Virus record (IMG/VR): IMGVR_UViG_3300030060_004561
Span: 1 to 50,734 of that record
Length of the DNA stretch: 50,734 nt
Source: a virus
Direction: 5' to 3' (one strand)
Below, in pieces: positions 19,101 to 40,602 of this stretch (positions are counted from its first letter, which is position 1; each line of letters begins with the position of its first letter). The notes under the pieces are model-generated. The model saw only the letters and a program-made list of their open reading frames with translations. It ran no database searches and had not been told where the DNA came from. The position numbers were made by a program, and so were the translations under genes.

Positions 19101-20177
19101 TACGGCGATAACAAGAACGCACAAGGACTTGAGGTCATGCCCCCAGAGAGGGCAGCTCTTATTAGGGCGCAGGCAATATCATCAACCGCTATAGGGTTGG
19201 CAGTGTGGGCGTTCCTGTTACAGCAGGACGATGACGATGAGGTGCAAGAGGAAGAGAAGTGGGATGTCATTGGTTCTTTAAGAGGGCTGTCCTACCAGAG
19301 GAGACAGCAGCTGTACTCTCAAGGGGTTAAGCCTCTGTCTATTAAGATAGGCTCCCACTACGTCAGCTACAAGAACACCCCGATGGCTGCTTGGTTTGCT
19401 GGCATGGGTGCATTAAGAGACGGGCTCAAGTGGAGCGACAACAAGGATGAGTACACTGCCGAAGATAAATTCTTAGACCTGACTATGGGTGGGTGGGCGT
19501 ACACTATGGACTTAGGCCCGACATCTACCACGTTCAGTTTGCTTCGGGCGTTAGAGGGTCAGGACTCTGGGCAGGTAGCCAAGAAGGTGCTGTCTCACAT
19601 AACTCAATCGAGTGTTGGCACACTGATGCCAGTGACTGGGGCTAACCTAATCAAAGAGATAGACTCAATGGCTAACCCGACCTATTACAAACCGGGCAAG
19701 GATCAAGTTGCTTCTTGGTTCCTTAGCCAGCAGGCATTCTTTAGAGTAAGCGGCAGGCCATTGGTTAACGCACTAGGTGAAGAGGTTGAGATAGCTCGCA
19801 CGCCTTGGGACAGGTGGTACGGAGGCACGGCTAATCCTGACCAGTTACTGAAGGAGCACAACCACCCAGCAGGCAGGCGTGAGTGGGTTGCCATTGCTAA
19901 GTGGGCTAGGAACGGAGTGTTCCTGCCCGGACAGAGCCTCGGCGGTAGGGATATAGTGGGGAGTGACCTTAAGAAAAGACCGATGACTCAAGAGGAAATC
20001 TATGAGTACAACAAGCAGTCAGGTCAGAAGTTGAAGGAACTCTTAGTGATGAACTTGGATTGGTTAGAAAAAACCACCCCCGAAACTGCACAGAGGTGGC
20101 TTGATAAGACATCACGTAGAATCCGTGATGGTGTTGCTAAGAGGATTGCTTACGAGGCTCGTCAGGCCCAAAGATAG
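10182..20177 (+). CDS. Giant 3,331-aa internal virion / ejection polyprotein
   Basis: This gene takes up one fifth of the genome. Visible parts: a Glu/Lys-rich N-terminus (about 35-50); Gly-rich segments at about 140-165 and 415-430 (GGVGGVVGGVFGLVTVA) that could enter membranes; a tandem ETEVAPVA-type repeat at about 520-568; two related linkers ending in TPEQEA and SPEQEA; a zinc-protease motif HELNH at about 1529; a LysM-like module at about 1837-1893 (TFEGISKVTGNSVADLRANN); a hydrophobic region at about 2650-2671; and a hydrophobic strand at about 3000 followed by an acidic run. This fits the gp16-like ejection protein of large podoviruses, which opens cell wall and membrane. No lytic transglycosylase motif was found by eye. 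The start has no clear ribosome site. The 3' end overlaps the opposing gene at 20137 by 41 bp. Confidence 0.85.
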   Translation: MRKINPTSSADLGRQLPDSFSGKLSALAQMGIGVRRAPNWKEEEEEKKEEEEKLREASWWDYVEVPAKQLASGTAQIFTESTASAGTLTAWAKGQVGLSGDPEDNFLYRAGTKGTEMAEIDYLPNNFRGGGTGFFLSDAPKGVGSALGFVGSGGVYGAVGKGVGKVAAKQVAKNLSKPSNFRRAIKEQDEVLKGSKVKQPTGPSSMPKSWYKNEAKDIVGKRARKTRADAMERLPKLGQSTGQVAGVGTTGVAVSAMEGFRDAVSELRAEAIRQGKDPDSIDYGVAFDAYFAAAPAGLLELLGVELPLLRAMRGASTVEDIAKHGGDNLARKSLTTKIAIALHKNLDNVTKGRFSAGLAAFSKRANGSNWVNNSRLVLGNIAQEAGQEAAQGAWLNMVAANIAGYDKNRDLFDGLVHQGGVGGVVGGVFGLVTVAIRRRAANIDRLKNLEDRASQLRERGQEKLADDVQLEANKLRAQIIAENVSIAEVDNQIEANDTTPAEVGEVVFEDNMGLDTLATEATPAAETAATPAAETEVAPVAETEVAPAAETELAPVAETAATPAAEGEDNFISRVNKVLAARFDESLTPEQEANMRQAFRDGGDALATAEKQLKLEEEWNAVDSDKLKADNAVVTEAKEQGVPVSEVIPTKAGNLTTAKVKEATKRWNKKKAADQQFTEETTETQSDEDIVKAVESKGKRLKVVKRKGKPLDDPKTEKIYQVVALDKDGNEIAKLSPPMKKKAAAAFMFRQVQPRFPGLKASVAGDQARELGLEDSYAGVVQAEEVTDPEGIEALDQDFRDRFYEKGKAPETTARTSELQQEEAADRRNEEQLEDDLSAAAEAEAAAAEEEPAPAAPKRQPKPSVVEKAKATVAARKDEDDYIAQMNKELEEMGDQPMSPEQEAENRKEYREGLKEEAAEPAPEEAETTAETVEGAEPDYIISDDQMAKDIASLKRLGETMGAGPGQAGYELSVIGGRLALAYIERGAYTFKQFAKTMVDQFGDWIKPHLVGWFFNASRSPLMQDIPVEQLTEKEMNDELEEMELEDSKPAEPKPPSSASAKLAQEKRKKAAVAKITGKNVGVPKPSVPVEDGDVVIQPQGPWQNKGLAQAWANKAADKNPDHTFEVIQTGHKEYRVQSSPQVTDDQLEGEDNKEGPDIVRPLIDQPQPQLSGFSPQESKSERELLEEKAQSLGERIASISKELNTAKTSETKTVFLYNLNSLKKELEEVNRAIPDASTNRQVTWFPNPKGSDTIVRRAGGPVIREAEMLEIDTEAEAELKAEREKALGKLRTKRRELKKLQGLNEKQLRDPKVQAQIQGLLDVIANLEGDLRRANNALQGRPIAGQQVGDAEFETQRDDVEIFRTEQDLIAEPELEPEALAKKVNATVSRNSQVPAGVRENADNFFNDEAYVAGLLDKDGDVFVPPKEGERHPDAVAISSNGITQVIKDTLIELIQNTGPFRGMIVPNIRFDTSKEGKPMFTTPNDGDNSIKIDLRKLAEVLNAPTLVTVDGVETGGDPFTIRQMLSHELNHVLIWRAIRHAKITEGKDGNPLSHEGIAKRFRAINKLNLQILEAQMANRAARGLPPENEAFRLWKRHVANHFSPNEVSQLVWDGSVQQQVEVKDKNNVIVRDENGNPVMKDLPYKGAILNAGKISQYQAGVEWLVFLMDRAAEGDKNVLNQLDSIKDSTRTFLESISKLGKGDFVGGAVPYAVQAMINNATTITGGVNVFSQRINNLNRDDSRWVEENIVPLYEKIDFDHGRRKDYREMAASDEASGQADIITRLWDEMVTEAHAFKSIVESLKRDKQGDATIKVNGKGVKINWAVDWHQPKGAYVLKVSSERGKAWNKTFEGISKVTGNSVADLRANNPHLPKNERIREGSYVLLHSVDKGQKGWVFDTETREQKWYRNAVDYMKGRKGKGSSVSSRGRAQQKDASEASINLDLIMHLLSNEADYANIQTELDQSSSVSKVEPFNPVLPASNEVDVQQPRAGYDPTKTSESLDRAAEREMIVSFLTDNFAPIEALGLRIEPQDMAHGIVMMVHDAAAGGGDIQKAATQIKAFHNKALSDQQALDDEVAALELQKDNLLNNRPKGWTVSLPQVRDALKKARDKATRHKNKYFPSGKLSKIEQPISVEVFRGSILPAFRDAMLQSGMTFEQLSDRIEKEKQTIVEVDVEEGNVEFGFPVPPPDSDGSGPLLDYIKELGVPEAAATSKGKVPGGTKYKKVQVSDFNEIMQLVEDYILTGKTPVNEGGVATLDGVIERTKELLNNANDSGFAKIDEALNIPVYDAAVIKDAAMSAVKKSQGLLSAELSQNERLRLVAFDSWISQQSGQAASQSAQALRMRQELIKKAGHYMARQGYENALRDRHYRDFGATVTLDWVNLVKGLITEAGARASNKSIAEHTKKGGINPARQILEGGSFAFLGREGESTAEMLNQIEDWIQRANQKISASHTNGPVTAKDWKQAFLSHPPAGREADAFNRAQWDRIASVSLNIWRAQRLAEFSSLLKENAGSLTGGELTAKALVESAEKLLATADAGVFQEGNNGADTMINVGGKKVHLPVTAAWDAVAPAAYNSNNGFFGDEVSVKLMELEKEIEDKKLDGVRAAAKREEMVSLIMANTPINPAHLMRDVWFAHALSGLRTFVDIGTGGVIFGATSTLLLSAENALAGTGKSRGDSLNMITSFVKGLWEGMDGFAYIVKTGDTSLLPDANERLMDMLKTQEDFYGGLEVEKFAKSDKFGSSYANILKFVRRMVLGLDYIGATAGRKAMMVYGASQRLANAESLAELETNAAKKAELKQQVAKLKKAYAASQNLSNEADKKRALDKAVEEIYGKNLTEVAHNSHLNEPLVKARAREIMEYDISTHADNLTLDSGELGRVFALNADPIGLGGLMHRMMQGSKLLKYPLGLAFSRAAMNMVSNATNFTPIISLINYARTVPTERSALTRFIRRTPQFKDFDIAPSSKRYGDNKNAQGLEVMPPERAALIRAQAISSTAIGLAVWAFLLQQDDDDEVQEEEKWDVIGSLRGLSYQRRQQLYSQGVKPLSIKIGSHYVSYKNTPMAAWFAGMGALRDGLKWSDNKDEYTAEDKFLDLTMGGWAYTMDLGPTSTTFSLLRALEGQDSGQVAKKVLSHITQSSVGTLMPVTGANLIKEIDSMANPTYYKPGKDQVASWFLSQQAFFRVSGRPLVNALGEEVEIARTPWDRWYGGTANPDQLLKEHNHPAGRREWVAIAKWARNGVFLPGQSLGGRDIVGSDLKKRPMTQEEIYEYNKQSGQKLKELLVMNLDWLEKTTPETAQRWLDKTSRRIRDGVAKRIAYEARQAQR

Positions 20178-20445
20178 GAGCTAAGAATTTCTCTAGGTAA
20201 TTCTTTTTCCTATCGTGTAAGACCTGCGCCAGTTTAATAGCCTCCATGTGTGGGTAGTAAGCAAGCTCAAGGCCACTCGTAACTAGGGTTGGTGCTCCCT
20301 TCTTAGCGTAATAAGAATGGTAGAACTTAGCCCTATTAGGTGGCATCACTGACAGCCAGCCATTGTATTCTATAGCCTGTGGCCTTGGGCCATATGCCTC
20401 GAACAATTTTTGGCAGCTGTCAGTGAATGGGATTGTTATGATCAC
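20137..20445 (-). CDS. Hypothetical protein, 102 aa
   Basis: Last gene of the leftward operon. It opens with GTG 20445, which shares bases with the upstream stop (GTGA), so translation is likely coupled. Aromatic residues are frequent (YNGWLSVMPP, KFYHSYYAKK, LAYYPHMEA), with a basic C-terminal part (DRKKNYLEKF). I recognise no domain. Its end runs 41 bp into the 3' end of the giant virion gene on the other strand, which could let antisense transcription dampen both. Confidence 0.65.
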   Translation of the reverse strand: MIITIPFTDSCQKLFEAYGPRPQAIEYNGWLSVMPPNRAKFYHSYYAKKGAPTLVTSGLELAYYPHMEAIKLAQVLHDRKKNYLEKFLAPIFGPDEPRKQSS

Positions 20446-20681
20446 GTCTTGAGGTCGCTGGGAAACCCATGCTTTTTGTATATCTGATTATTGTACAGAC
20501 CCCAGACACTAACCACAACATCCATGTCGTCCCCTCGGTTACCCTTTAGGGACAGGGTAATGCAAGCACCTTGGTTAAGGTTACACTTATGCAGCTTAAC
20601 GACAATGTTCTTGTCCTTGCCCTTGTCTCTGAATGTTGCAGTCGTCTCACGTACTACGTCCTTATCTAGTTTAGTTGCCAT
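20442..20681 (-). CDS. Hypothetical protein, 79 aa
   Basis: A small beta-rich protein: alternating strands such as KNIVVKLHKCNLNQGACITL, then MDVVVSVWGLYNNQ. ATG 20681 lies inside the end of the upstream gene (overlap 11 bp) with an AAAGGA ribosome site. No family recognised. Its tight coupling to both neighbours supports expression. Confidence 0.7.
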   Translation of the reverse strand: MATKLDKDVVRETTATFRDKGKDKNIVVKLHKCNLNQGACITLSLKGNRGDDMDVVVSVWGLYNNQIYKKHGFPSDLKT

Positions 20682-21054
20682 TGGCTATCCTTTCTTCTTC
20701 AGTTATCTCCTCTATGTGACCTTGAATTGTGGCCACGGTTTCATGGTCATCGACTAGCCGCTTGACTAAGTCGAGTGATCTTTGGTTGTACCCACCCACA
20801 GACCAGCGTGTGATCTGTGTGGTTGGAGTACCTTGCACGCCGCAGTAAGCGTAGCCATTCTTCCAGTTATGGATGGTGGCTTTCGTGCCATCCTCGAACT
20901 CTATCCTCCACTCTGCATCTACCTTCTGTCCGTCTCCCATTGTTGGATGTCCGAACAGCTTGCATAGCAAGTCGTAGCCTGCATCAAGGTTCCCTTGCTT
21001 GTGGCTAAGTGATACGTCGATGTGAACTCTGTCATTGTGTGTTACGTATTGCAT
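20671..21054 (-). CDS. Hypothetical protein, 127 aa
   Basis: I choose ATG 21054, not the longer frame up to 21144, because AAAGGA lies 7-8 nt upstream. The protein has a beta-rich centre: WRIEFEDGTKATIHNWKNGY, then AYCGVQGTPTTQITRWSVGG, followed by a helix (LDLVKRLVDDHETVA) and an acidic tail (EEITEEERI). The pattern EFEDG...ATIHNWKNG recalls small phage proteins that read out a substrate-binding strand pair, but I cannot name a family. It overlaps the upstream gene by 13 bp. Confidence 0.7.
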   Translation of the reverse strand: MQYVTHNDRVHIDVSLSHKQGNLDAGYDLLCKLFGHPTMGDGQKVDAEWRIEFEDGTKATIHNWKNGYAYCGVQGTPTTQITRWSVGGYNQRSLDLVKRLVDDHETVATIQGHIEEITEEERIANGN

Positions 21055-21719
21055 TGTATTTCCTTTGCTTTGTTTTTGCGGGCACCATGTGCTGGTGCGT
21101 ATATGTTCTTTGCTTTTATTGCCGATCCCATGCACAGCTTGCACTGGTCACACGTTACGTTGTGTGTGTAGTGCGGGCACATGATCTCGTCTTTGGTTAT
21201 GGGTTCCGGGCCTACCCTGTATGTGCGGTAGCCCATTGCGTTAGCCTTCTTCATCTCATGCACTGAGTGCACACTCGCCATGCAGAATGTCCTGTATGGC
21301 AGGTTGGCTGGGACTTTCCACTTGTGTGTGTAGCCAGTCCACTTGCCTGCGATTTGAAGGAGTGGTTGCCAGTGGTGCGCTGGCATTTCGGTTGGCTCCC
21401 CAGCAGCACCAACACGCAGTGGCGTGTTGCTGAGTAGCGTGACATCGCTCGACTCTGCGTCGAACGCCTTGTACTTACCCGCCTTGTACGATTTGTACAC
21501 TTGAAGCGGGGCTTGCTCCCACCTGACGTAGCAGAAGGGGTCGGCTGGGCATCCGCTGCAGCCTGCTCCCTTGGTTGTGTTGTTAGGTGGCTTGGATTTC
21601 CTGAGTATCCAAGTCTGTGCCATGCGACCAGTCTTCGTGTTAGAAGATGGCCTCCATAGTCCAGTCATTAAGACGACTGTCTTAGTGTTAGACCAAAGGA
21701 TGAAGCTCCCTTTGACCAT
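21042..21719 (-). CDS. Cys-rich phage protein (DUF7227-like)
   Basis: 225 residues. The opening (VVLMTGLWRPSSNTKTGRMA, then QTWIL) followed by CSGCPADPFCYV (C54, C57, C63) and QAPLQVYKSYKAGKY matches a phage family I know as DUF7227. Near the C-terminus is a second cluster, MCPHYTHNVTCDQCKLCMG, that looks like a zinc knuckle. Two Cys clusters suggest metal binding; radical-SAM or ferredoxin-like use has been guessed for relatives but is not shown here. The leader contains palindrome 21744-21767 and a GAAAGGAA ribosome site. Confidence 0.75.
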   Translation of the reverse strand: MVKGSFILWSNTKTVVLMTGLWRPSSNTKTGRMAQTWILRKSKPPNNTTKGAGCSGCPADPFCYVRWEQAPLQVYKSYKAGKYKAFDAESSDVTLLSNTPLRVGAAGEPTEMPAHHWQPLLQIAGKWTGYTHKWKVPANLPYRTFCMASVHSVHEMKKANAMGYRTYRVGPEPITKDEIMCPHYTHNVTCDQCKLCMGSAIKAKNIYAPAHGARKNKAKEIQCNT

Positions 21720-21743
21720 GATGTTCCTTTCTGTTGTGTTGAT

Positions 21744-21767
21744 TTCTTAAGTCGAGTGACTTAAGAA
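21744..21767. repeat. Palindromic element 1 (loop GAGT)
   Basis: Two 10-bp arms, TTCTTAAGTC and GACTTAAGAA, around GAGT. This is the longest perfect copy. It lies 25 nt upstream of the start at 21719 and 47 nt past the stop of the gene at 21814. Confidence 0.9.
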
Positions 21768-21813
21768 TTGTGGTGCCTGCCTTGAGCTGTGTGTGGCTGA
21801 CAGGTGATGGGTC

Positions 21814-22065
21814 TTATCCTTTCGTCCCGTCACCGTGGCAGGCATACCTTTCATCTAGTATCTCATTGGCTACCTTCACCACTGAATCGTCAGAGTACAC
21901 AGACCTAAGCCTAGACTTACCCTCACGTGTGGTGATCTCGGTTACTAGGATGGGGTTCATCTCAGGTGTATCCATCTGAGCTTCTATCAGTGCACGCAGT
22001 GGTGACTCGTCTGAGTTAGCAGGGAAAAACTTAGCATCTTCCCCGTTCAGCATTAGTATTTGCAT
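21814..22065 (-). CDS. Hypothetical protein, 83 aa
   Basis: Contains ESPLRALIEAQMDTPEMNPI (residues 20-39), probably helical, and a second helix, SVVKVANEILDERYA. The end is polar (CHGDGTKG). No recognised domain. It starts 2 nt after the upstream stop (22067), so translation is probably coupled. The 70-nt gap beyond its stop holds palindrome 1. Confidence 0.65.
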   Translation of the reverse strand: MQILMLNGEDAKFFPANSDESPLRALIEAQMDTPEMNPILVTEITTREGKSRLRSVYSDDSVVKVANEILDERYACHGDGTKG

Positions 22066-22066
22066 A

Positions 22067-22336
22067 TCAGTTTACCTTGTCTATGTATGCTGTTGTGTAC
22101 ATGGAGCTTCTGTCAGGCAGCGGCCCCTTTAGATCGACGAGGTTAGCCATGCCTCTGACTATTGCATGAGGCTGGCTGTTCCTCTCGTGTGTTTCAGTAG
22201 GTATGGTGCACTTGATGTTGAGCACTTGGTAACACTTCTGCTTCCAGTGAACAGTCCATACAGCCATGCCCATCTTGTTAGAGTAGGGCTTGTTGTAATG
22301 GAACCACACCCTACGTGGCTTGTTTGTTTTGCTCAT
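22067..22336 (-). CDS. Hypothetical protein, 89 aa
   Basis: A small mixed protein with aromatic strands (RRVWFHYNKPYSNKMGMAVW, KCYQVLNIKC). It overlaps the upstream gene by 26 bp and leads directly into the next. No family recognised. Two short Cys-containing strands are the only feature. Confidence 0.65.
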   Translation of the reverse strand: MSKTNKPRRVWFHYNKPYSNKMGMAVWTVHWKQKCYQVLNIKCTIPTETHERNSQPHAIVRGMANLVDLKGPLPDRSSMYTTAYIDKVN

Positions 22337-22514
22337 CTCTTTCTATCCTTTCTTCCTCTAGTTGTGGGTACATATTTTCTACCCAGTTAATCATCTCGTC
22401 TAACGTGTCGAAGATGTACTCGTCTCTCCCGATGTCTAAATCGTTCACCTTGTAGTACACCCACCACTGATCGAGGTGATGGAAGATCGTTAGTCTTGGT
22501 TCATCTCCCCACAT
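22311..22514 (-). CDS. Hypothetical protein, 67 aa
   Basis: An acidic protein with a likely beta hairpin (LTIFHHLDQWWVYYKVND) followed by a helix (FDTLDEMINWVENMYP) and a charged C-terminus (EEERIERDEQ). Starts 2 nt after the stop of the gene at 22517. No family recognised. Confidence 0.65.
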   Translation of the reverse strand: MWGDEPRLTIFHHLDQWWVYYKVNDLDIGRDEYIFDTLDEMINWVENMYPQLEEERIERDEQNKQAT

Positions 22515-22516
22515 GG

Positions 22517-22969
22517 TTACAGGTTCCTTTCTACTAGGTCAGCGATGTCATCGAAGCTACCATGACTGACACCCGGATTCCTCATGTAGGTATCGTTGAT
22601 GTTGGCTGCGTTACAAGAGTTGTATTTATAGGTACGATCTTCTTCCTCTAGTTTCAGCACGTAGACATCAAGCCCATCATCACCTTGATCTGACAGCTCT
22701 GTCTCAAGGAATCCAGCCCAGCTTGCTACGCATTCGGGCATATAAGATATAGCTTGAGTCTTGTTCCATTCGTCTGGGTTTCTTGCCAGCTCGGTAGCTT
22801 CCTCCCAGCTAACACCCTTGTCTTTGCAGTACAAGTCAGTCAGCACACCGAGGCAACAGAACTTGTCCTTGTGACCCTTAGCTGCATCAGTCTTGAGTTG
22901 TTCTTGTCCCTGCTTGTATTCACCGGAGCGCAATGCCTCCGTCCATAATGTTTTGATCTTTTCTTTCAT
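22517..22969 (-). CDS. Conserved phage protein of the CCLGVL family, 150 aa
   Basis: I choose ATG 22969, with AAAGGAA upstream; the longer frame to 23080 only adds codons from the pentamer tract and palindrome 2. The sequence shows the pattern of a widespread small phage family: WTEALRSGEYKQGQEQLKT at residues 9-27 and KFCCLGVLTDLYCKD at about residue 37, followed by an acidic C-terminal half (ENL tail, GSFDDIADLVERNL). The family is common in phages and environmental genomes and has no known function. Confidence 0.78.
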   Translation of the reverse strand: MKEKIKTLWTEALRSGEYKQGQEQLKTDAAKGHKDKFCCLGVLTDLYCKDKGVSWEEATELARNPDEWNKTQAISYMPECVASWAGFLETELSDQGDDGLDVYVLKLEEEDRTYKYNSCNAANINDTYMRNPGVSHGSFDDIADLVERNL

Positions 22970-22996
22970 CTTATTCCTTTCTTGTTGTGTTGTTGA

Positions 22997-23018
22997 TCTT
23001 AAGTCGTGTGACTTAAGA
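22997..23018. repeat. Palindromic element 2 (loop GTGT)
   Basis: Arms TCTTAAGTC and GACTTAAGA (9 bp) around GTGT. It lies 28 nt upstream of the start at 22969 and directly borders the pentamer tract. Confidence 0.9.
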
Positions 23019-23021
23019 GTT

Positions 23022-23697
23022 GCCGTGACTGCCACGACATGACCCACCGGGCCTTGTCTCTCCAAACCTTGCCTTGCCATGACTGCCTTGCCTCGTCTCG
23101 ACTGGTCTCACCCTGCGATGCCATGACTGCCTCGCCTTGTCCAGCCTGTCCTAACCTAGACGTACCAGACCTTGCCCCGACTGCCTTGTCACGACTTGCC
23201 TGACCACGCCTTGTCTTGCCGTGTCTCGTCCCGACTGGACTGCCCTGCCGTGTCTCTCCATTCCTCACCATGCCCTGCCCCGCCATGACTGGCTTGCCAT
23301 GTCTGGCCATGTCCTGACTTACCCTGCCCCGTCCCGACTGCCATGCCACGTCTGGCCTTGCCATGATCTGCCCCGTCTCGCCAAGACTTACCGGGCCTTG
23401 ACTGCCACGCCCGACCCTGCCTTGTCCCGCCTTGCCTTGCCGTGCCAAGACTGCCTCACCTAGTCGCGCCTCGCCTTGTCCCGCACCGACTTGCCGTACC
23501 AAGACTGCCCTGACTGGACGTGTCAGGCCACGTCTAGCCGTGCCTTGCCTAGCCTTGACTGCCATGCCCTGTCGCGTCTCGCCTTGCCACTACCTGCCTA
23601 GCCAAGCCTTGCCCAGCCTTGACTGCCTCGCCTCGTCGCTCCTCGCCTTGCCAGACCTTGCCTTGCCCTGACTGCCCAGCCACGCGAAGCCGAGTTA
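23022..23697. repeat. Hierarchical pentamer tract (GNCNN units with GACT punctuation)
   Basis: About 676 bp made almost wholly of 5-mers of form GNCNN on the + strand (GCCTT, GCCTC, GTCTC, GCCAT, GCCGT). The register slips by one base at each GACTGCC. These marks are at 23027, 23081, 23125, 23179, 23238, 23287 (GACTGGC), 23336, 23400, 23449, 23503, 23557, 23621 and 23670. The 12 intervals are 54, 44, 54, 59, 49, 49, 64, 49, 54, 54, 64 and 49, all 5n-1. Because 5-mers are read over three frames, several frames are open by accident and give Ala-Arg-Gln-Gly-rich peptides. I call no gene inside. It separates the stop at 23708 from palindrome 2. Confidence 0.92.
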
Positions 23698-23707
23698 GGA
23701 ATGGGGT

Positions 23708-24247
23708 CTAGTCTTCAACCTCGACACCGAGGTCTAGCTTGACCCTGTCAATGGCAGCGAATACCGCTGCGAATTCGGTGTAGTTATCGTACTTCCTTCG
23801 GAACGTGTCCATCTCGAACAGGATACGCTCAAGCACGAGAGCACGAGTGTCTTCGTCTTTCATCGCACGTTCAGTAGGTACATACACGTTGCGTTCCACT
23901 TCCTCACCCTCATCGTTGATGACTTCTTGTCGGATGCTGATGAACGCACGGACGTTACCGTTCTCATCTGCTCCCTCTTCAACGACAGGTCTGATCTCGA
24001 TAGACTGAATGAGGTTGCGAGCCTGCTTCAATCTGTGCTGTTGTGCAGCAGCCTCATCATCCCACTCGAAGTGGTGATGCAATGGATTGTCAGGGTCTTC
24101 AGCCCTAGCCAATACATCTTCGGGTAACACGTACCCGTCATTGGTGTTGACGATGTCAGTCAACTCATTGTGTGCTGCGATTGCATCTGCATCATCACTT
24201 AGCTTGTGTGATCCAGCCTTCTTAACTACTTCATACTTAATGCTCAT
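23708..24247 (-). CDS. Conserved phage/plasmid hypothetical protein, 179 aa
   Basis: Acidic protein with a conserved-looking core: NPLHHHFEWDDEAAAQQHRL (residues 53-72), then KQARNLIQSIEI and a beta segment VRAFISIRQEV. This is a known-looking family that accompanies replication-region genes in phages and plasmids: a variable N-terminus, EWDD-containing helix, then strands. It ends with helices (RRKYDNYTEFAAVFAAIDRV). No catalytic motif. ATG 24247 follows GAAAGGAAAA. Confidence 0.72.
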   Translation of the reverse strand: MSIKYEVVKKAGSHKLSDDADAIAAHNELTDIVNTNDGYVLPEDVLARAEDPDNPLHHHFEWDDEAAAQQHRLKQARNLIQSIEIRPVVEEGADENGNVRAFISIRQEVINDEGEEVERNVYVPTERAMKDEDTRALVLERILFEMDTFRRKYDNYTEFAAVFAAIDRVKLDLGVEVED

Positions 24248-24270
24248 TTGTTTTCCTTTCGTTTGTTTGT

Positions 24271-24292
24271 TCTTAAGTCACTCGACTTTAGA
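24271..24292. repeat. Palindromic element 3 (loop ACTC), containing a stop codon
   Basis: Arms TCTTAAGTC and GACTTTAGA around ACTC, with one T-T mismatch. On the - strand the mismatch makes TAA, which is the stop codon of the gene at 24288-25031. Confidence 0.85.
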
Positions 24293-25031
24293 TTTCTACT
24301 TTGAATGTACCCCAGCTGTTACCCTGTCTTTGCGGTCGGTTCTCACCGATGCCAACTGTCCTACCTGCATCGTTAACAGCATTGACTATCTCCTCTGCTG
24401 TCACTTGGTTGGTGTTGTACTCAACAGTAAAGGGTATCTTCCATGTGTTGAACCCAGCGCGGTACCGAATGTCTGCAGTACCCATGCCCACACGGACATC
24501 ATCTTCCCGCAGACAGGCACCGTACTTGTGCGCCTCTTCCAGTTGCTCAAGCATCTCTTCCTCATCCCAGCCCATCTCTTGAGCCAAGAGTTTCTCTGTA
24601 TAGTTTAGCCCATTAACTGGAGGCGCAATGATAGGCACGAGATCGTACTTACCTTCCCGATCTTCATGCCCGTAGATGTGCATGAATCCTTTGGCATCCT
24701 GCATAGTCTTGCCATCAAAGAACTTGAACGCACGCTGCGTTGCTTGCTTGATAGCGACAGCAGGGAATCCATAAGGAGTGCCATCCACTGTGTCCTCGAA
24801 CCTGTACAGTGTGTCGTACATCAGCTCCACTGGTTGCTTCTCTTCCGGTTTGCGCTTGGCTTTGCCGAGCTGCTTGTCCCGCATTTGCTTGCGGCTTTTC
24901 TCTGAGAACTTGTGAACGACCAGACGATTGAGACCAACGATAGTTATATCAACCTCTTTGTATGTCTGAATCTTTAGGTTCACACGTTCGGGTACTTGTT
25001 TCTTGTCTGCTTTCTTAGTTGTAGTAGGCAT
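24288..25031 (-). CDS. Phage protein with possible RAMP-like features, 247 aa
   Basis: N-terminus ITIVGLNRLVVHKFSEKSRK, basic stretch KAKRKPEEKQ, FPAVAIKQATQRAFK, then DVRVGMGTADIRYRAGFNTW and IPFTVEYNTNQVTAEEIVNA. It ends with VGIGENRPQRQ then GTFKVE. The order strand, helix, basic loop, Gly-rich return with GIGxxRPxxxGxxGTF resembles RAMP/Cas7-like folds. I have seen similar phage proteins, but I cannot show the fold from sequence. Its stop codon lies inside palindrome 3. The leader holds a ribosome site GAAAAGGAA at 25031. Confidence 0.65.
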   Translation of the reverse strand: MPTTTKKADKKQVPERVNLKIQTYKEVDITIVGLNRLVVHKFSEKSRKQMRDKQLGKAKRKPEEKQPVELMYDTLYRFEDTVDGTPYGFPAVAIKQATQRAFKFFDGKTMQDAKGFMHIYGHEDREGKYDLVPIIAPPVNGLNYTEKLLAQEMGWDEEEMLEQLEEAHKYGACLREDDVRVGMGTADIRYRAGFNTWKIPFTVEYNTNQVTAEEIVNAVNDAGRTVGIGENRPQRQGNSWGTFKVEI

Positions 25032-25069
25032 TGTTATTCCTTTTCTTTATTGGTTTGTGTGTTGAAAGA

Positions 25070-25089
25070 GGGGGAGCACTCGCTCCCCC
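25070..25089 (-). terminator. GC-rich hairpin, possible leftward terminator
   Basis: Arms GGGGGAGC and GCTCCCCC around ACTC, then TCTTTC on the - strand. It sits between two leftward genes, next to palindromic element 4. The U-tract is short, so it may attenuate rather than stop transcription. Confidence 0.5.
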
Positions 25090-25092
25090 CTG

Positions 25093-25112
25093 CTTAAGTC
25101 ACTCGACTTAAG
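25093..25112. repeat. Palindromic element 4 (loop ACTC)
   Basis: Arms CTTAAGTC and GACTTAAG (8 bp) around ACTC, the same loop as the adjacent GC hairpin. It lies 2 nt downstream of the stop of the DUF932 gene. Confidence 0.9.
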
Positions 25113-25114
25113 AA

Positions 25115-26176
25115 TTAGTTGTTGATCTCGTTGCCGATCTCACCTGTCCGACCATACTCTCCCATGTCTGCATATTCTGATGCGAGTGCGAAGGCATCTT
25201 GACTGATGCGTGGGCTGGCCTCGAAGTATTGATAGGCAGCACGATCCTTCGCACTCTTATGTGCTGTGTCCGTGCGCTTCTCCTCTACCATGTCGTGGTC
25301 TTGTACTGCAGTGACTGCATTGTATGCACCCCATACAGTACCACGTCCCAGCTCTGCACCATGCCTGCTGCCGTGGTATGCAGTCATGTACTTGTCGTAC
25401 ATATTGCCGGGGCGTCCGGTCATCTCGCCATTCTTGTAGTGACGAGGCTCCACCTTGGCGATGGTCTTGAAGTACCGCTCGACAGCGGGCTGCTTGATGG
25501 TGGTGGTTGCGAACTTCTGAAAGACCTTCACTGTATCGTTGAAGAAGATGCGGTGCTTCTCTAGCAATGACGTAGCAAAGTCAGTCTTCGCCTTGATGTC
25601 ACCACTGTGCTTGATGCTACCCGACTGCTGTGTCTTACCCTTGAGCGCAGCATACAGTGTGTTCTTACACACCACACGAATGGTTGTCATCTTGTACGTC
25701 AGGCTACGGTTACCCGTGTGACCTGTGACTATCAGCAGGTACGGCATGACAGTGTCACCATTGACCACATCTGCTGGATCAATGGGCATCTTAACCTGCA
25801 CCCATGCCAGCGCACCACGCTCATACTCACCGCACCCTACGAACTCACCGCCTTGGGCAATGATTGGATCGGCTATGCCAAACGCATGGATGTTGTCGAT
25901 CTCTTGGAAGCTCTGCCCTACCTGACCTAATGGTACACGTGTGTCACTGCGTAACACCATGCGTTGATCCTCTACCTCCACCCATCTGCGTGATGGTGCT
26001 GGATTCTGCTGCGTCACACCCCATCTGTCGGTGTGCTCTAGGTCGTCGTCATCCCATGCTACCTTAGCAAAGTAGGTACGCCAGTTCATACCGGAGTTGC
26101 TGATTAGGTCATGCGCTGTCTTCATGTCAGCGAACTTGGGTTTCTCACCTAGTGTAGTTGCTATTGTATCTAACAT
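25115..26176 (-). CDS. DUF932 phage/plasmid-like protein (TIGR03299 type)
   Basis: 353 residues. Diagnostic parts in order: VGQSFQEIDNIHAF, GCGEYERGALAWVQVK, GDTVMPYLLIVTGHTGNRS, TTIRVVCKNTLYAAL (the conserved RVVCKNT signature) and a C-terminal helical part with basic DHDMVEEKRTDTAHK. The family is widespread on phages and plasmids, usually near replication genes, and its role is unknown; a DNA-binding or replication-linked function has been proposed from context. ATG 26176 follows GAAAAGGAA. The leader carries palindrome 5. Confidence 0.85.
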   Translation of the reverse strand: MLDTIATTLGEKPKFADMKTAHDLISNSGMNWRTYFAKVAWDDDDLEHTDRWGVTQQNPAPSRRWVEVEDQRMVLRSDTRVPLGQVGQSFQEIDNIHAFGIADPIIAQGGEFVGCGEYERGALAWVQVKMPIDPADVVNGDTVMPYLLIVTGHTGNRSLTYKMTTIRVVCKNTLYAALKGKTQQSGSIKHSGDIKAKTDFATSLLEKHRIFFNDTVKVFQKFATTTIKQPAVERYFKTIAKVEPRHYKNGEMTGRPGNMYDKYMTAYHGSRHGAELGRGTVWGAYNAVTAVQDHDMVEEKRTDTAHKSAKDRAAYQYFEASPRISQDAFALASEYADMGEYGRTGEIGNEINN

Positions 26177-26178
26177 AT

Positions 26179-26493
26179 CTATTCCTTTTCTTTTGTGTTT
26201 GTGTTGTGTTGTTCCCTTAAGACACCCGTCTTAAGAATTCTTGGCAGGGGCGTGCACCGTATGCTGCGCTCATCTTGCAGCTCATCCCAGCTCTTAACCT
26301 TAAGAGTGGGCCTCACATATAATAACTCAAGCGATGCTTCCTCTTCATCGTTACTGTCTAGTATCTTGCACCAATCGTGTGCGTCATGCACATGATGCTG
26401 CTCCTTGGCTACCATCAGCCTGTCAAATGACCGTCTAATGTTCTCCTCTGTTGCGTTCATGCTGCCTAGATTTATTTTGATTTGAACTATCAT
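26179..26493 (-). CDS. Hypothetical protein, 104 aa, reading through palindrome 5
   Basis: Starts with ATG 26493 sharing bases with the upstream endolysin stop (TAATG). Residues 1-60 are helical (EENIRRSFDRLMVAKEQHHV). The last 20 residues (RILKTGVLREQ) come from palindrome 5 and the A-rich leader of the next gene, so this palindrome either sits inside the coding region or was acquired when an original stop was lost. No family recognised. Confidence 0.6.
   Translation of the reverse strand: MIVQIKINLGSMNATEENIRRSFDRLMVAKEQHHVHDAHDWCKILDSNDEEEASLELLYVRPTLKVKSWDELQDERSIRCTPLPRILKTGVLREQHNTNTKEKE
26216..26235. repeat. Palindromic element 5, compensatory variant (loop ACCC)
   Basis: Arms CTTAAGAC and GTCTTAAG around ACCC. 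Both arms differ from the consensus (TC/GA to AC/GT), and the stem is fully kept. Confidence 0.9.
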
Positions 26494-26951
26494 TACTTGT
26501 CCTTTCTGTAGAATTTATGTCTGCCTACTGTACTCACGTGCTTGTACGCTCGCGTCCAGTAATTATCTATATTGTCACGTGCATAATGGTCGGCGTGTTT
26601 AACATATGCCCTGTCTAATGCGTGCAAATGTATAGCTAATGCCTTTGCCTTGGGTGCTAAGTCGTGCGACTTAAGAAGTTGATTGAGCTTATTGAAGTTA
26701 GGGTCGGCTGGATTCCAGCATGAAAACTGCCACGTCTTCCCGTTATTCTTAAGACAGATGTCTTTAGCTGTCTTGTGTCTGTTGATTACACGCTGCTGAA
26801 TCACGCAGGCTACAGCATACATACCTTCGTATCCCTCGCCACGTGCCTCACCTAGCAGTGTCTTTGCTACTATCTCCTGCTCCTCTGTTAATTGCTGTGC
26901 CTGTGCCTGCGATGCTATCGCCAGCGCACACAGTAGTATCTTTTTACTCAT
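26493..26951 (-). CDS. Secreted SleB-type endolysin (cell-wall hydrolase)
   Basis: 152 residues from ATG 26951, preceded by GGAGGA. The signal peptide is MSKKILLCALAIASQAQA with cleavage likely after AQA (residue 18), so export goes by Sec. The body follows the SleB / Hydrolase_2 pattern: TLLGEARGEGYEGMYAVACV (E35 or E39 as catalytic acid), VIQQRVINR, WQFSCWNPADPN, ADHYARDNIDNYW and VGRHKFY. The enzyme would cleave peptidoglycan glycan strands for lysis. Palindrome 6 lies inside the coding region and specifies residues 92-98 (LLKSHDL). A 36-aa gene overlaps its start (ATGA). Confidence 0.87.
   Translation of the reverse strand: MSKKILLCALAIASQAQAQQLTEEQEIVAKTLLGEARGEGYEGMYAVACVIQQRVINRHKTAKDICLKNNGKTWQFSCWNPADPNFNKLNQLLKSHDLAPKAKALAIHLHALDRAYVKHADHYARDNIDNYWTRAYKHVSTVGRHKFYRKDK
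26658..26673. repeat. Palindromic element 6, degenerate, inside the endolysin gene
   Basis: TAAGTC-GTGC-GACTTA, 6-bp arms. It encodes LLKSHDL of the endolysin; the same SHDL would be read from palindrome 2. Confidence 0.75.
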
Positions 26952-27058
26952 TGGTTCCTCCATATTCTCAGCGGGTTACGTGTCACGTCACACACTGCGT
27001 GCGATGCTGTGACTAGCTGCCATTCCATATACTTCCAGCTCCATTTCCATTCATTCAT
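26948..27058 (-). CDS. Small Trp-rich protein, 36 aa, upstream of endolysin
   Basis: Sequence MNEWKWSWKYMEWQLVTASH then AVCDVTRNPLRIWRNQ. Start ATG 27058 follows GAAAGGAACAC, the leader type used across this operon, and the stop overlaps the endolysin start (ATGA). Six Trp in 36 residues is unusual. It may modulate lysis, or serve as a leader peptide that couples endolysin translation. No family recognised. Confidence 0.65.
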   Translation of the reverse strand: MNEWKWSWKYMEWQLVTASHAVCDVTRNPLRIWRNQ

Positions 27059-27085
27059 TGTGTTCCTTTCGTTTGTGTGTTGTTC

Positions 27086-27103
27086 TTAAGTCAAGTGACT
27101 TAA
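27086..27103. repeat. Palindromic element 7 (loop AAGT)
   Basis: Arms TTAAGTC and GACTTAA (7 bp) around AAGT, merging into an A-run that is the U-tract of the leftward terminator at 27112. It lies 28 nt upstream of the start at 27058. Confidence 0.9.
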
Positions 27104-27111
27104 AAAATAGC

Positions 27112-27145
27112 GGCGGGGAATGCGTATGCTCACGCACTCCCCGCC
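27112..27145 (-). terminator. Strong leftward intrinsic terminator
   Basis: 14-bp arms (27112-27125 and 27132-27145) with a 6-nt loop, then TATTTTTTAA on the - strand. The 20/37 position pairs as G-U only in - strand RNA and is an A-C mismatch on the other strand, which fixes the direction. Confidence 0.8.
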
Positions 27146-27243
27146 TGTCATATGTTTATTTCGGTGGGCGATTCCCCGACATTTGCCCTTAGCTCTCTCT
27201 GCTACGAGCCTTTTGGCCCGCTCGTCTGAGCATAGACGATAGC

Positions 27244-27265
27244 TCTTAAGTCAAACGACTTAAGA
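27244..27265. repeat. Palindromic element 8 (loop AAAC)
   Basis: Arms TCTTAAGTC and GACTTAAGA (9 bp) around AAAC, in the hairpin-rich block with no adjacent gene. Confidence 0.9.
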
Positions 27266-27485
27266 TGTGAGCGTGCGACAGCCCAGCTGTCATCGCTTTC
27301 GGTAGCCATACACTACGCGCTCCGTCGAGCACGCGCTGCGTTGCCACCGTGCGCTTGAGTCACTGCTGGATTTTACTCATGCTACCCTCATTGCTTTCAG
27401 CGTGAAGACAGAGAACGCAGCGGCGTACGATAGCTGCGCCTGTGCCTCCGTGCTACGGGCTTGCATTGTGCCAGCACGCTCACAC

Positions 27486-27505
27486 CTTAAGTCAGGCGAC
27501 TTAAG
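27486..27505. repeat. Palindromic element 9 (loop AGGC)
   Basis: Arms CTTAAGTC and GACTTAAG (8 bp) around AGGC. The next copy follows after 15 nt, with a GAACTC direct repeat between. Confidence 0.9.
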
Positions 27506-27520
27506 AACTCGCTTGCGAAC

Positions 27521-27542
27521 TCTTAAGTCGAGTGACTTAAAA
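27521..27542. repeat. Palindromic element 10 (loop GAGT)
   Basis: Core arms TTAAGTC and GACTTAA (27523-27540) around GAGT; one C/A mismatch breaks the outer pairs. The A-run after it is the U-tract of the terminator at 27552. Confidence 0.9.
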
Positions 27543-27551
27543 AAAGAGAGA

Positions 27552-27569
27552 GGGGAGCTTTCGCTCCCC
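27552..27569 (-). terminator. Leftward intrinsic terminator after the gene at 27590
   Basis: Arms GGGGAGC and GCTCCCC with a GAAA tetraloop on the - strand, then TCTCTCTTTTTTT. Classic intrinsic terminator, 20 nt beyond the stop at 27590. Confidence 0.8.
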
Positions 27570-27589
27570 CCTCGCTCGTGCGCTCCCGC

Positions 27590-28144
27590 TTAGGCGGTCT
27601 CGCTGACCTCCAGCTTGAAGGTCTTAGCGGCGATCTCGTCGAACCGCTTCGTGATCGCCTTGGCGATCGGCGACTCCGCGCCGCCTGCGTACTTGATGCA
27701 GGCGTCGAAGTCGATGTCGACGATCTTGCCCTTCTCGCGCTTGGCGCAGTGCTCCATGATCGCGACGATCACCTTGCGCTCTGTGTCGACCTTGACCGTG
27801 CGAGTGCGTGCAAAGAACCCGGCGGCGTTCAACGCCCGGTTGATCCGCAACGACACAGCGTTGTCGGAGCGCAGGCGGTGGTGCTTGTCCTTAAGCAGCT
27901 TGCCGACCTCGCTGTGAACCTTCGCCCACGGCGTGCCCTTGCCTGCTTTGTTCTTGCCTTTGACCAGCCCGACTTTCGCGCCGTACGCTTTCATGAAGCG
28001 CACGATCTCAGCCGTGCAGGCTTTCTCGACTTCAGTCTCCACGACAACCAGTTGCAGAATCGCATTTGCGACCGCGCCTGCGGTTTCTACGTTGGCGGTT
28101 TCGGTGATCTCCACAGTCGGGAGTTGGGGTATTTCAAACGTCAT
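27590..28144 (-). CDS. GC-rich protein of unknown function, 184 aa
   Basis: First gene of the leftward operon. N-terminus Ala/Val/Thr-rich, possibly helical. The middle is basic (LVKGKNKAGKGTPWAKVHSE, KLLKDKHHRLR). The end is Ala/Lys-rich (ESPIAKAITKRFDEIAAK). Base use is clearly more GC-rich than in neighbours, with many GCG, GTC and CTC codons, suggesting recent acquisition. The charge pattern suggests nucleic-acid binding. ATG 28144 follows GAAAGGAA. Confidence 0.75.
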   Translation of the reverse strand: MTFEIPQLPTVEITETANVETAGAVANAILQLVVVETEVEKACTAEIVRFMKAYGAKVGLVKGKNKAGKGTPWAKVHSEVGKLLKDKHHRLRSDNAVSLRINRALNAAGFFARTRTVKVDTERKVIVAIMEHCAKREKGKIVDIDFDACIKYAGGAESPIAKAITKRFDEIAAKTFKLEVSETA

Positions 28145-28180
28145 AACACTATTCCTTTCATGAGGGGCAGTATTGATATT

Positions 28181-28200
28181 CTTAAGTCGTGCGACTTAAG
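28181..28200. repeat. Palindromic element 11 (loop GTGC), operon head
   Basis: Arms CTTAAGTC and GACTTAAG around GTGC, 36 nt upstream of the first gene of the leftward operon. Confidence 0.9.
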
Positions 28201-33231: not shown

Positions 33232-34545
33232 TTAGTCCGTAAATACAGCAGATTTGAATCTGGTAAGGTGGGGGACGAACTGCAGGTCTATTCTCCCGCA
33301 TGGCCCGTTCCGGTGCTTGGCGACAATAACCTCCACAATGTTATTCTCGTCCCCAGTAGCGTGCAGCAATGCGACTATGTCAGCATCCTGCTCAATGCTT
33401 CCGCTATCACGCAAGTCGCTAAGTCTAGGCTTGCGGTCTTGATCCTCAACCTTTCGGGATAGCTGGCTTAGAACGAGCACGGGTATGTCTAGTTCCTTCG
33501 CCACGCTTTTCACAGCGTCAGAAATCTTGCCTACCTCTTGAACCCGCGAGTCAGCCTTCGCGTTCATACGCTGCAGATAGTCAATCACTAGGAACTTGAT
33601 GCCGTACTTGTACTTCATCTGCCTAGCCCTAGACATAAGCTGTATCGGATTTAAGCTGCCGCTTTCGTCTATGTACAAAGGCGACCTAGCAATCTTGCAT
33701 CCGTTGGTTGCAATCGACTGTATTTCACTCGCAGCAAGGCGACCACTCGCAATGTTATGTCCGTTTACTCCTGCACGAGATGACAGCATTCTCTTAACGA
33801 GGGATCGAGATGTCATCTCTAGAGAGAAAAATCCTGTAGGGATTCCTTGGTCTATTGCCACGTTTTCCGCAATGGTCAACGCCAGACTGGTCTTGCCCTG
33901 TGACGGCCTCGCAGCGAGCACAATCATGTCGCCATCCTTAAGACCCGTAGTAATTTTATCGAGAGCGGGAAACCCCGTTGAGATTCCAACAACAGTACCT
34001 TGGTTGGCGTATGCAGTCTCAATGTCGGTCATAGCCATCTTGACTACATCCTTCAACGGAGTTATCCCGCTCTCCCTGTCATCAGATAGAAGCCCCATCA
34101 GCTTAGACTGGGCATCGTTTAGCAGCTCGTCATCATCACCTTTGCCGCTAACTATCGACAGGATTTGCTGCGCGGTGGTCGTGAGGGAGCGCAGCTCGGA
34201 CTTCTTCTTTACCTTAGCCACATACGCTGGAAGTCCAGCAGCGGATGGGACTTGGTTGGGTAGCGAACTCACATAAGGCAAACCGCCGATAGCGTTAAGC
34301 CCTCCTTCAACTGTATCCTTCGCCTCTTGAAAAATAGTAATAGTGTCAACCACCGTCCCGTCATTCCTCAGCTTAAGCATGAGTTCAAACAAGTTGCGGT
34401 GCCGATGCTCGTAGAAATCGTCAGGGATGAGTGATGTCGCCGCATCATCAATGCAAGCTGGCTCTAGCAAGCAGCAGCCAAGCACAGCAGCTTCAGCCTG
34501 AGAGGACGCTGGTATGCTAATTTCCTGCTGTATCGTCGATTCCAT
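33232..34545 (-). CDS. dnaB: Replicative DNA helicase DnaB-like
   Basis: 437 residues from ATG 34545 (a TTG at 34557 would add four). N-terminal domain 1-150 (SSQAEAAVLGCCLLEP) and C-terminal RecA-like domain. Walker A ARPSQGKTS (about 212-220), Walker B KFLVIDYLQ (about 317-325), H3-like QLSRKVEDQDRKPRLSDLRD, arginine finger region SGSIEQDADIV. It would unwind DNA at the phage fork, loaded by the organiser at 30363. The end overlaps no gene; the RusA-related gene begins 1 bp on. Confidence 0.93.
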   Translation of the reverse strand: MESTIQQEISIPASSQAEAAVLGCCLLEPACIDDAATSLIPDDFYEHRHRNLFELMLKLRNDGTVVDTITIFQEAKDTVEGGLNAIGGLPYVSSLPNQVPSAAGLPAYVAKVKKKSELRSLTTTAQQILSIVSGKGDDDELLNDAQSKLMGLLSDDRESGITPLKDVVKMAMTDIETAYANQGTVVGISTGFPALDKITTGLKDGDMIVLAARPSQGKTSLALTIAENVAIDQGIPTGFFSLEMTSRSLVKRMLSSRAGVNGHNIASGRLAASEIQSIATNGCKIARSPLYIDESGSLNPIQLMSRARQMKYKYGIKFLVIDYLQRMNAKADSRVQEVGKISDAVKSVAKELDIPVLVLSQLSRKVEDQDRKPRLSDLRDSGSIEQDADIVALLHATGDENNIVEVIVAKHRNGPCGRIDLQFVPHLTRFKSAVFTD

Positions 34546-34723
34546 ATTGCTTGGCAAGTTTGGCTGTTTCGGTCAGAACGCAGTGACGAATGATGGAGGA
34601 TACAGGGATTCCAGAGGCTTCTGAAATCTTCTTCAACACATCGTCGAGTTTCTTCGGGATTCTAAAACAGGTGGTCTTTTCCATGCGCCTTGGCATGGCA
34701 TCGTTTGTAGTTGCAATACTCAT
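34517..34723 (-). CDS. Ribbon-helix-helix regulator
   Basis: 68 residues from ATG 34723 (a TTG is 9 nt upstream). Core: EKTTCFRIPKKLDDVLKKIS then EASGIPVSSIIRHCVLTETA, a CopG/Arc-type DNA-binding strand and two helices. It overlaps DnaB by 29 bp. It could repress the early operon or its own promoter. Direct target not known. Confidence 0.75.
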   Translation of the reverse strand: MSIATTNDAMPRRMEKTTCFRIPKKLDDVLKKISEASGIPVSSIIRHCVLTETAKLAKQYGIDDTAGN

Positions 34724-34737
34724 GTCTGTCAATTTTA

Positions 34738-40409: not shown

Positions 40410-40602
40410 AAGAGTTAAGTTGAAGAAGAAACTTCTCGAAAAGAAATTCCGCGAACCTCTCCCTCTTTTGCGATAAAACCATTTCGCTTAAATGGGCAAT
40501 TTCTTTTTGCTCCTTGCGGCAACGCTTTACTTCTTCAGAGCAAATAAGAACCAAGAACTTCAGCTCTTCCTCATCAATAGTTATATCGCTAGGGTCGGAC
40601 AT
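40369..40602 (-). CDS. Hypothetical helical protein, 77 aa
   Basis: I take ATG 40602 (MSDPSD), because the longer frame runs into the portal's end. Sequence: IDEEELKFLVLICSEEVKRC, KEQKEIAHLSEMVLSQKRER, an amphipathic helix pair. It overlaps the portal by 14 bp and the next gene by 41 bp. No family recognised. Confidence 0.65.
   Translation of the reverse strand: MSDPSDITIDEEELKFLVLICSEEVKRCRKEQKEIAHLSEMVLSQKRERFAEFLFEKFLLQLNSYEDDGLESGSELN

What the first reader, a model, noticed from the sequence alone, without database searches (positions are those of the whole stretch)
21744..28200. Eleven-copy palindrome family, CTTAAGTC-N4-GACTTAAG, confined to one leftward operon
Copies at 21744, 22997, 24271, 25093, 26216, 26658, 27086, 27244, 27486, 27521 and 28181. 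Arms are 6-10 bp, loops are always 4 nt, with at least eight different loop sequences (GAGT, GTGT, ACTC, ACCC, GTGC, AAGT, AAAC, AGGC). Constant stems with free loops suggest selection on a hairpin or on a dyad site for a dimeric protein. Most copies lie between a gene end and the leader of the next gene. None was seen in the other 42 kb. Possible roles: operators or stoperators, RNA processing sites, or a short mobile palindrome.
Basis: partly seen in the sequence, partly recalled or inferred. Interest (0 to 1): 0.85.

Follow-up and report, generated by a model that had tools for sequence, protein, structure and literature searches.

The report
Repeated palindromic control sites in phage
An uncultivated phage carries a dozen near-identical 20-base palindromes, nearly all between the genes of a single operon; its only known close relative carries the same set with the same base swapped in every copy, so an unidentified protein most likely reads these sites, probably to switch the operon.

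Summary
The palindrome family is real: 14 matches to CTTAAGWC-RNNY-GWCTTAAG (up to 3 mismatches) in the window against 0.22 expected. All but one (12268, probably chance) lie in the leftward operon 20137-28200. The 4-nt centre is RNNY in 12 of 12 copies. One close relative was found (IMGVR_UViG_3300031886_000005, collinear, 53 kb). Its 13 copies in the same operon all have CTTAAGAC/GTCTTAAG arms; the window mostly has CTTAAGTC/GACTTAAG. This concerted switch in both arms means that a sequence-specific factor reads the arms. The only A-type copies left in the window overlap coding sequence, which suggests the window's lineage switched. Fixed arms with a variable centre favour a DNA dyad bound by a dimer (operators/roadblocks at gene junctions) over an RNA hairpin, but a mild strand asymmetry keeps the RNA reading open. 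The binding protein is unidentified: the Arc-like ribbon-helix-helix protein keeps its predicted base contacts, and the fast-diverging first gene (27590-28144) has no recognised fold. Closest known: Cluster O 17-bp dyads, Cluster K ESAS and Cluster A stoperators of mycobacteriophages. The family was found nowhere else.

The parts
28181..28200 (-). Site 1, CTTAAGTC-GCAC-GACTTAAG (minus strand), leader of the operon's first gene (27590-28144)
   Evidence: orthologous slot in relative G001 14833
27522..27541 (-). Site 2, TTTAAGTC-ACTC-GACTTAAG, directly after a terminator
   Evidence: G001 15504 also follows a terminator
27486..27505 (-). Site 3, CTTAAGTC-GCCT-GACTTAAG, 36 bp from site 2
27245..27264 (-). 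Site 4, CTTAAGTC-GTTT-GACTTAAG, in a stretch without a convincing ORF
27085..27104 (-). Site 5, TTTAAGTC-ACTT-GACTTAAG, directly after a terminator, 26 nt before a small ORF
   Evidence: G001 16310
26748..26767 (-).
   Evidence: G001 16732
26656..26675 (-). Site 7, CTTAAGTC-GCAC-GACTTAGC (2 mismatches), inside the endolysin gene, degenerate in the relative
26216..26235 (-). Site 8, CTTAAGAC-GGGT-GTCTTAAG, A-type arms, overlaps the 3' end of the 104-aa gene and the leader of the DUF932 gene
   Evidence: identical to G001 17207
25093..25112 (-). Site 9, CTTAAGTC-GAGT-GACTTAAG, followed by a terminator-like GC hairpin
   Evidence: G001 18810 with the same hairpin
24272..24291 (-). Site 10, CTAAAGTC-GAGT-GACTTAAG, leader of the 179-aa gene, absent in the relative
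22998..23017 (-). Site 11, CTTAAGTC-ACAC-GACTTAAG, leader of the gene at 22517-22969
21746..21765 (-). Site 12, CTTAAGTC-ACTC-GACTTAAG, leader of the 225-aa gene
21667..21686 (-). Degraded A-type copy inside the 225-aa gene (3 mismatches), orthologous to G001 22305
27548..27573 (-). Intrinsic terminator after the first gene, directly upstream of site 2
27112..27145 (-). Intrinsic terminator (15-bp stem), directly upstream of site 5
27590..28144 (-). First gene of the operon, 184 aa, 60% GC, 41% identical in the relative, no known family; candidate reader of the sites (inference)
34517..34732 (-). Arc-like ribbon-helix-helix protein, 71 aa, alternative candidate reader (inference)
20137..28200 (-). 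Leftward operon carrying the sites (endolysin, DUF932, DUF7227-like and unknown genes)

Best explanation
The copies are a family of about a dozen 20-bp dyad DNA sites, CTTAAG(T/A)C-RNNY-G(A/T)CTTAAG, read by one sequence-specific dimeric regulator, most likely phage-encoded. They act together as the operator set of the leftward operon: one site in front of its first gene and further sites at gene junctions, just upstream of the ribosome-binding leaders, where the bound protein would block or modulate transcription in the manner of operators plus stoperators. Shown here: the sites, their symmetry, their junction position, their restriction to one operon, and the concerted arm switch between two phages. 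Inferred: protein binding, that it acts on DNA rather than RNA, repression as the outcome, and the identity of the binder (first gene 27590-28144 or the Arc-like protein 34517-34732).
For: Number and confinement far above chance. Near-perfect symmetric arms; centre RNNY in 12 of 12 window copies and 13 of 13 in the relative, a pattern that reads the same on both strands and includes A..C combinations that do not pair. Concerted switch: 10 of 12 window copies have TC/GA arms and 13 of 13 in the relative have AC/GT arms (p 2e-5 if copies were independent), although the phages are collinear and most shared proteins are 40-80% identical. In the window the A-type copies all overlap coding sequence, where the change would alter amino acids. 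Slots conserved at orthologous genes (28181/14833, 27522/15504, 27085/16310, 26216/17207, 25093/18810). Fixed arms with a variable centre is the usual signature of a DNA dyad. Distant relatives of the phage that lack the operon lack the sites.
Against: No binding protein is identified. The RHH candidate keeps its predicted base contacts (T20, C22, R24) unchanged. The first-gene candidate has no recognised fold. No sigma-70 promoter overlaps the sites, so a classical operator is not demonstrated. A mild strand asymmetry (position 12 is T in 13 of 13 copies of the relative; wobble-type exceptions 26 versus 5 on the transcript strand) is not expected of a fully symmetric DNA site. Only two genomes carry the family.
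Confidence: 0.58

Rival explanations
1. RNA leader element: each site forms an 8-10 bp hairpin in the mRNA just upstream of an unstructured CAA-rich leader and the Shine-Dalgarno sequence. A phage or host RNA-binding protein or nuclease reads it and cuts, protects or insulates each gene's message.
For: Sites lie between stop codon and leader on the transcribed strand; they fold at about -9 to -11 kcal/mol with the leader unpaired. Exceptions to pairing are mostly of the G-U type on the transcript strand (26 against 5 of the A-C type, my tally; nominal p 2e-4 computed for 5 of 31), and the centre is oriented in the relative.
Against: Stem bases are invariant while the loop varies, the opposite of usual RNA hairpin recognition. 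A..C occurs across the centre at about the expected rate. Several sites precede no gene or lie inside genes (27245, 27486, 26748). Flank asymmetry can come from T-rich terminator tails and A-rich leaders. The arm switch needs a sequence-specific reader in any case.
Confidence: 0.22
2. Recombination boundary sequences: the sites with their leaders are short homologies that let gene cassettes be exchanged or moved.
For: The orthologous gene at window 22517-22969 and relative 17257-17682 sits in different places in the two operons, each time directly behind a site; the number of small site-preceded genes differs between the phages.
Against: Does not explain strict dyad symmetry, the RNNY centre, or a concerted base change in all copies. 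Sites inside genes do not bound cassettes. Likely a by-product rather than the function.
Confidence: 0.08
3. Promoters for an unrecognised phage RNA polymerase or sigma-like factor, one per gene.
For: T7-promoter-like position in front of leaders; at three places (27522, 27085 and the relative's 15504) a strong terminator lies directly upstream.
Against: No RNA polymerase or sigma factor found in the genes tested, including the 3331-aa protein. A symmetric site gives no direction, and no conserved -10 or other element surrounds it. At 25093 a terminator-like hairpin follows the site.
Confidence: 0.07
4. Chance or low-complexity artefact, or a mobile palindrome spreading by itself.
For: Multiple copies of a short palindrome.
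Against: 0.22 expected against 14 found; conserved slots and coordinated change between phages; flanks are not copied along with the site.
Confidence: 0.02

Closest known systems
17-bp dyad repeats TGTTCGG-N3-CCGAACA of Cluster O mycobacteriophages (Corndog group; PMC4351075)
   Same: Many copies of a short perfect dyad with invariant arms and a variable short centre; many intergenic and some inside genes; predicted to bind a dimeric protein; function unknown.
   Different: Sequence unrelated; 34 copies over the whole genome, not tied to one operon or to starts; no arm switch between relatives reported in the passages read.
Extended start-associated sequences (ESAS) of Cluster K mycobacteriophages (PMC3203893)
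   Same: Inverted repeats with a variable spacer just upstream of translation starts of non-structural genes; consensus of the repeats differs between subclusters; thought to bind DNA-binding proteins.
   Different: ESAS arms are 17 bp, imperfect, spacer 4-13 bp, and linked to a 13-bp SAS (GGGATAGGAGCCC) that is absent in the leaders here.
Stoperators of Cluster A mycobacteriophages (L5/Bxb1; PMC6550527, PMC9283540)
   Same: Many repressor sites along transcribed genes; site consensus and repressor diverge together between phages.
   Different: Stoperators are 13-bp asymmetric, oriented with transcription and bound by a monomeric repressor; here the site is a dyad and the repressor is not known.
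LexA/DinR SOS box CGAAC-RNRY-GTTCG of Bacillus (from memory, a lead only)
   Same: Dyad with 4-bp purine-N-N-pyrimidine centre.
   Different: Different arms; no LexA-like protein found in the phage genes tested.

Membership tests
Cluster K ESAS | Inverted repeat immediately upstream of translation starts | tested here: met
   About half of the copies lie 20-45 nt before a start codon
Cluster K ESAS | 17-bp imperfect arms linked to the 13-bp SAS GGGATAGGAGCCC | tested here: not met
   Arms are 8-10 bp and near-perfect; the leaders hold no such SAS, only CAA-rich sequence and AAGGA-type ribosome sites
Cluster A stoperators | Asymmetric 13-bp site in one orientation relative to transcription | tested here: not met
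   Site is a 20-bp dyad; only mild asymmetry in the centre
Cluster A stoperators | Bound by the phage immunity repressor and blocks elongation | not testable with these tools
   Needs binding and transcription assays
Cluster A stoperators | Site consensus co-varies with a diverging repressor between phages | tested here: inconclusive
   Sites switch in concert; the repressor is unidentified; the first-gene protein is 41% identical between the phages, the RHH protein 81-83%
Cluster O 17-bp dyads | Sequence TGTTCGG-N3-CCGAACA | tested here: not met
   Arms CTTAAG(T/A)C and centre of 4 nt
Cluster O 17-bp dyads | Invariant arms, variable centre, many dispersed copies | tested here: met
   dispersal here limited to one operon
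Intrinsic terminators | Hairpin followed by a T-run on the transcribed strand | tested here: not met
   Sites are followed by A/C-rich leader, not T; true terminators lie next to some of them

The most novel reading that the evidence does not exclude
A sequence-specific RNA-level system: a phage factor recognises a palindromic hairpin placed before each gene of an operon and processes the polycistronic message into units with a hairpin and an unstructured CAA-rich leader, and the recognised stem sequence has been re-specified as a whole set between two related phages.
Probability: 0.15. Interest if true: 0.75.

Novelty: new variant of a known kind. Interest (0 to 1): 0.52.

Why it matters
Dispersed dyad sites in phages (Cluster O, ESAS) have gone unexplained. 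Here a pair of related phages shows a clean concerted change of one base pair in nearly every copy, with left-over old-type copies where coding sequence holds them. That is a natural experiment on how a regulator and a dozen sites change specificity together, and it gives a direct test for the unknown reader: it should bind its own phage's arms and not the other's.

Tried and rejected
Chance or composition: rejected. Terminators: the sites lack T-runs. Host sigma-70 promoters at sites: none. Known RNA family: no Rfam match in the window. Search for other carriers: T-, A- and S-type (G/C) patterns in IMG/VR gave only single-copy contigs apart from the one relative; protein searches in IMG/VR, GTDB genomes and INPHARED found no further carrier. 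Six whole distant relatives (terminase 56-58%, portal-like protein 47-49% identity) lack the operon and have no palindrome family of their own. Gordonia and Mycobacterium phages sharing the 179-aa gene have no such family in the stretches read. Structure prediction of the first-gene protein was too poor to use. Corndog could not be fetched as a positive control. Recombinase core sites: a 4-bp spacer is too short for tyrosine recombinases (from general knowledge).
Full report
Observation. The window is a 50,734-base virus record from IMG/VR. A scan with CTTAAGWCRNNYGWCTTAAG finds 14 places with up to three mismatches, against 0.22 expected from dinucleotide shuffles. Thirteen lie in the leftward operon between 21667 and 28200. 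One weak match (12268) lies in the gene of a 3331-aa protein and is probably chance.

Anatomy. On the transcribed (minus) strand the usual order is: stop codon, a few T, the 20-mer, a CAA-rich leader, an AAGGA-type ribosome site, ATG. Nine of twelve copies have a non-coding core although only 21% of the operon is non-coding. Strong terminators lie directly upstream of 27522 and 27085, and a GC hairpin lies directly downstream of 25093. The 4-nt centre is RNNY in all 12 copies. RNNY is its own reverse complement at the purine/pyrimidine level, as expected for a site read symmetrically on both DNA strands.

Phage context. The phage has a tyrosine recombinase, an Arc-like ribbon-helix-helix protein, a DnaB helicase, an ssDNA-binding protein, an exonuclease, terminase and a 3331-aa protein of unknown kind. 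The operon with the sites encodes the 184-aa first gene, an endolysin (Hydrolase_2), a DUF932 protein, a DUF7227-like protein and unknowns. Two of these, the DUF932 and 179-aa proteins, have distant homologues in actinobacteriophages among others.

The relative. IMGVR_UViG_3300031886_000005 (53,398 bases, here G001) is collinear and circularly permuted; most shared proteins are 40-80% identical. It carries 13 copies in the same operon, every one with CTTAAGAC...GTCTTAAG arms, a few with one mismatch. In the window 10 of 12 have CTTAAGTC...GACTTAAG. The base pair at position 7 of each arm has therefore changed in both arms of nearly all copies. The window's A-type copies (26216, 26748, and the degraded 21667) all overlap coding sequence and are orthologous to the relative's 17207, 16732 and 22305; the T-type would change amino acids there. 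The simplest inference is that A-type is ancestral and that the window's lineage re-specified its free copies. Sites also turn over: 24272 and 26656 have no counterpart in the relative, and the gene at 22517-22969 sits in a different place in the relative, again behind a site.

Mechanism. A plain hairpin does not explain invariant stems, a variable loop and a coordinated switch; these require a sequence-specific reader. For a DNA reader speak the symmetry, the RNNY centre including non-pairing A..C, and copies with no gene behind them or inside genes. For an RNA reader speak the position before leaders and a strand asymmetry: exceptions to pairing are G-U-type on the transcript strand 26 times and A-C-type 5 times (tallied; binomial), and position 12 is always T in the relative (p 0.0016, copies not independent). 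I weigh DNA at about 0.58 and RNA at about 0.22. Repression by roadblock at gene junctions is inferred from position alone.

The reader protein. The RHH protein is Arc/NikA/RelB-like, but the residues that align with base contacts of RelB (S3, D5, R7; PMC2812701) are identical in the two phages. Its cluster of changes (IPKK to NTDQ) follows the recognition strand. The first-gene protein is a separate unit (site, gene, terminator) in both phages and is 41% identical, compared with 73-78% for the endolysin, DUF932 and small-terminase neighbours. That fits a co-diverging regulator, though other operon genes of unknown function diverge as much, and no fold could be assigned. Neither candidate is established.

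Known systems. The nearest precedents are the Cluster O 17-bp dyads (PMC4351075), the Cluster K ESAS whose consensus also differs between subclusters (PMC3203893), and Cluster A stoperators whose consensus co-varies with the repressor (PMC6550527). The family here fails defining features of each (sequence, SAS linkage, asymmetry), so it is filed with none. It is a new variant of the general kind 'dispersed multi-copy regulator sites in a phage'. It was not found in any other collection searched.

Limits. Two genomes only; host unknown; no binding or transcript data; copies are not independent, so p-values are nominal.

Noticed in passing
window 23018-23700 (minus strand); relative G001 20300-20985: A 680-nt non-coding, G-rich array of degenerate pentamers GGNNN in the same operon, punctuated 12 times by GGCAGTC (11 spacings, ten of them 44-64 nt and of the form 5n+4, one double) in the window, and 10 times by GGCGGTA(C) (spacings nearly all multiples of 5) in the relative. 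The arrays share no blastn similarity but the same architecture and slot. No known kind comes to mind; could be an R-loop or origin region, a recombination hot spot or a sponge.
   Followed up: partly
window 10182-20177: A 3331-aa protein with no match in PHROGs or Pfam, about 36% identical to a 3232-aa protein in the relative and not found in the six distant relatives tested.
   Followed up: partly
window 40589-42769 and 43337-45034: The portal-like 726-aa protein has 193 relatives in IMG/VR, the best 80 at about 46-50% identity apart from the close relative, but none in INPHARED phages or GTDB genomes, so the phage belongs to a large uncultivated group.
   Followed up: partly
L013 3057-3080: An A-type palindrome in an unrelated contig (66 kb) is part of an intrinsic terminator (CCCTTAAGAC-AAAC-GTCTTAAGGG followed by a T-run); a second similar hairpin follows. 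Unrelated to the finding.
   Followed up: yes
window 27590-28144: The operon's first gene is 60% GC in a 50% GC genome; its relative's copy is 52% GC.
   Followed up: no
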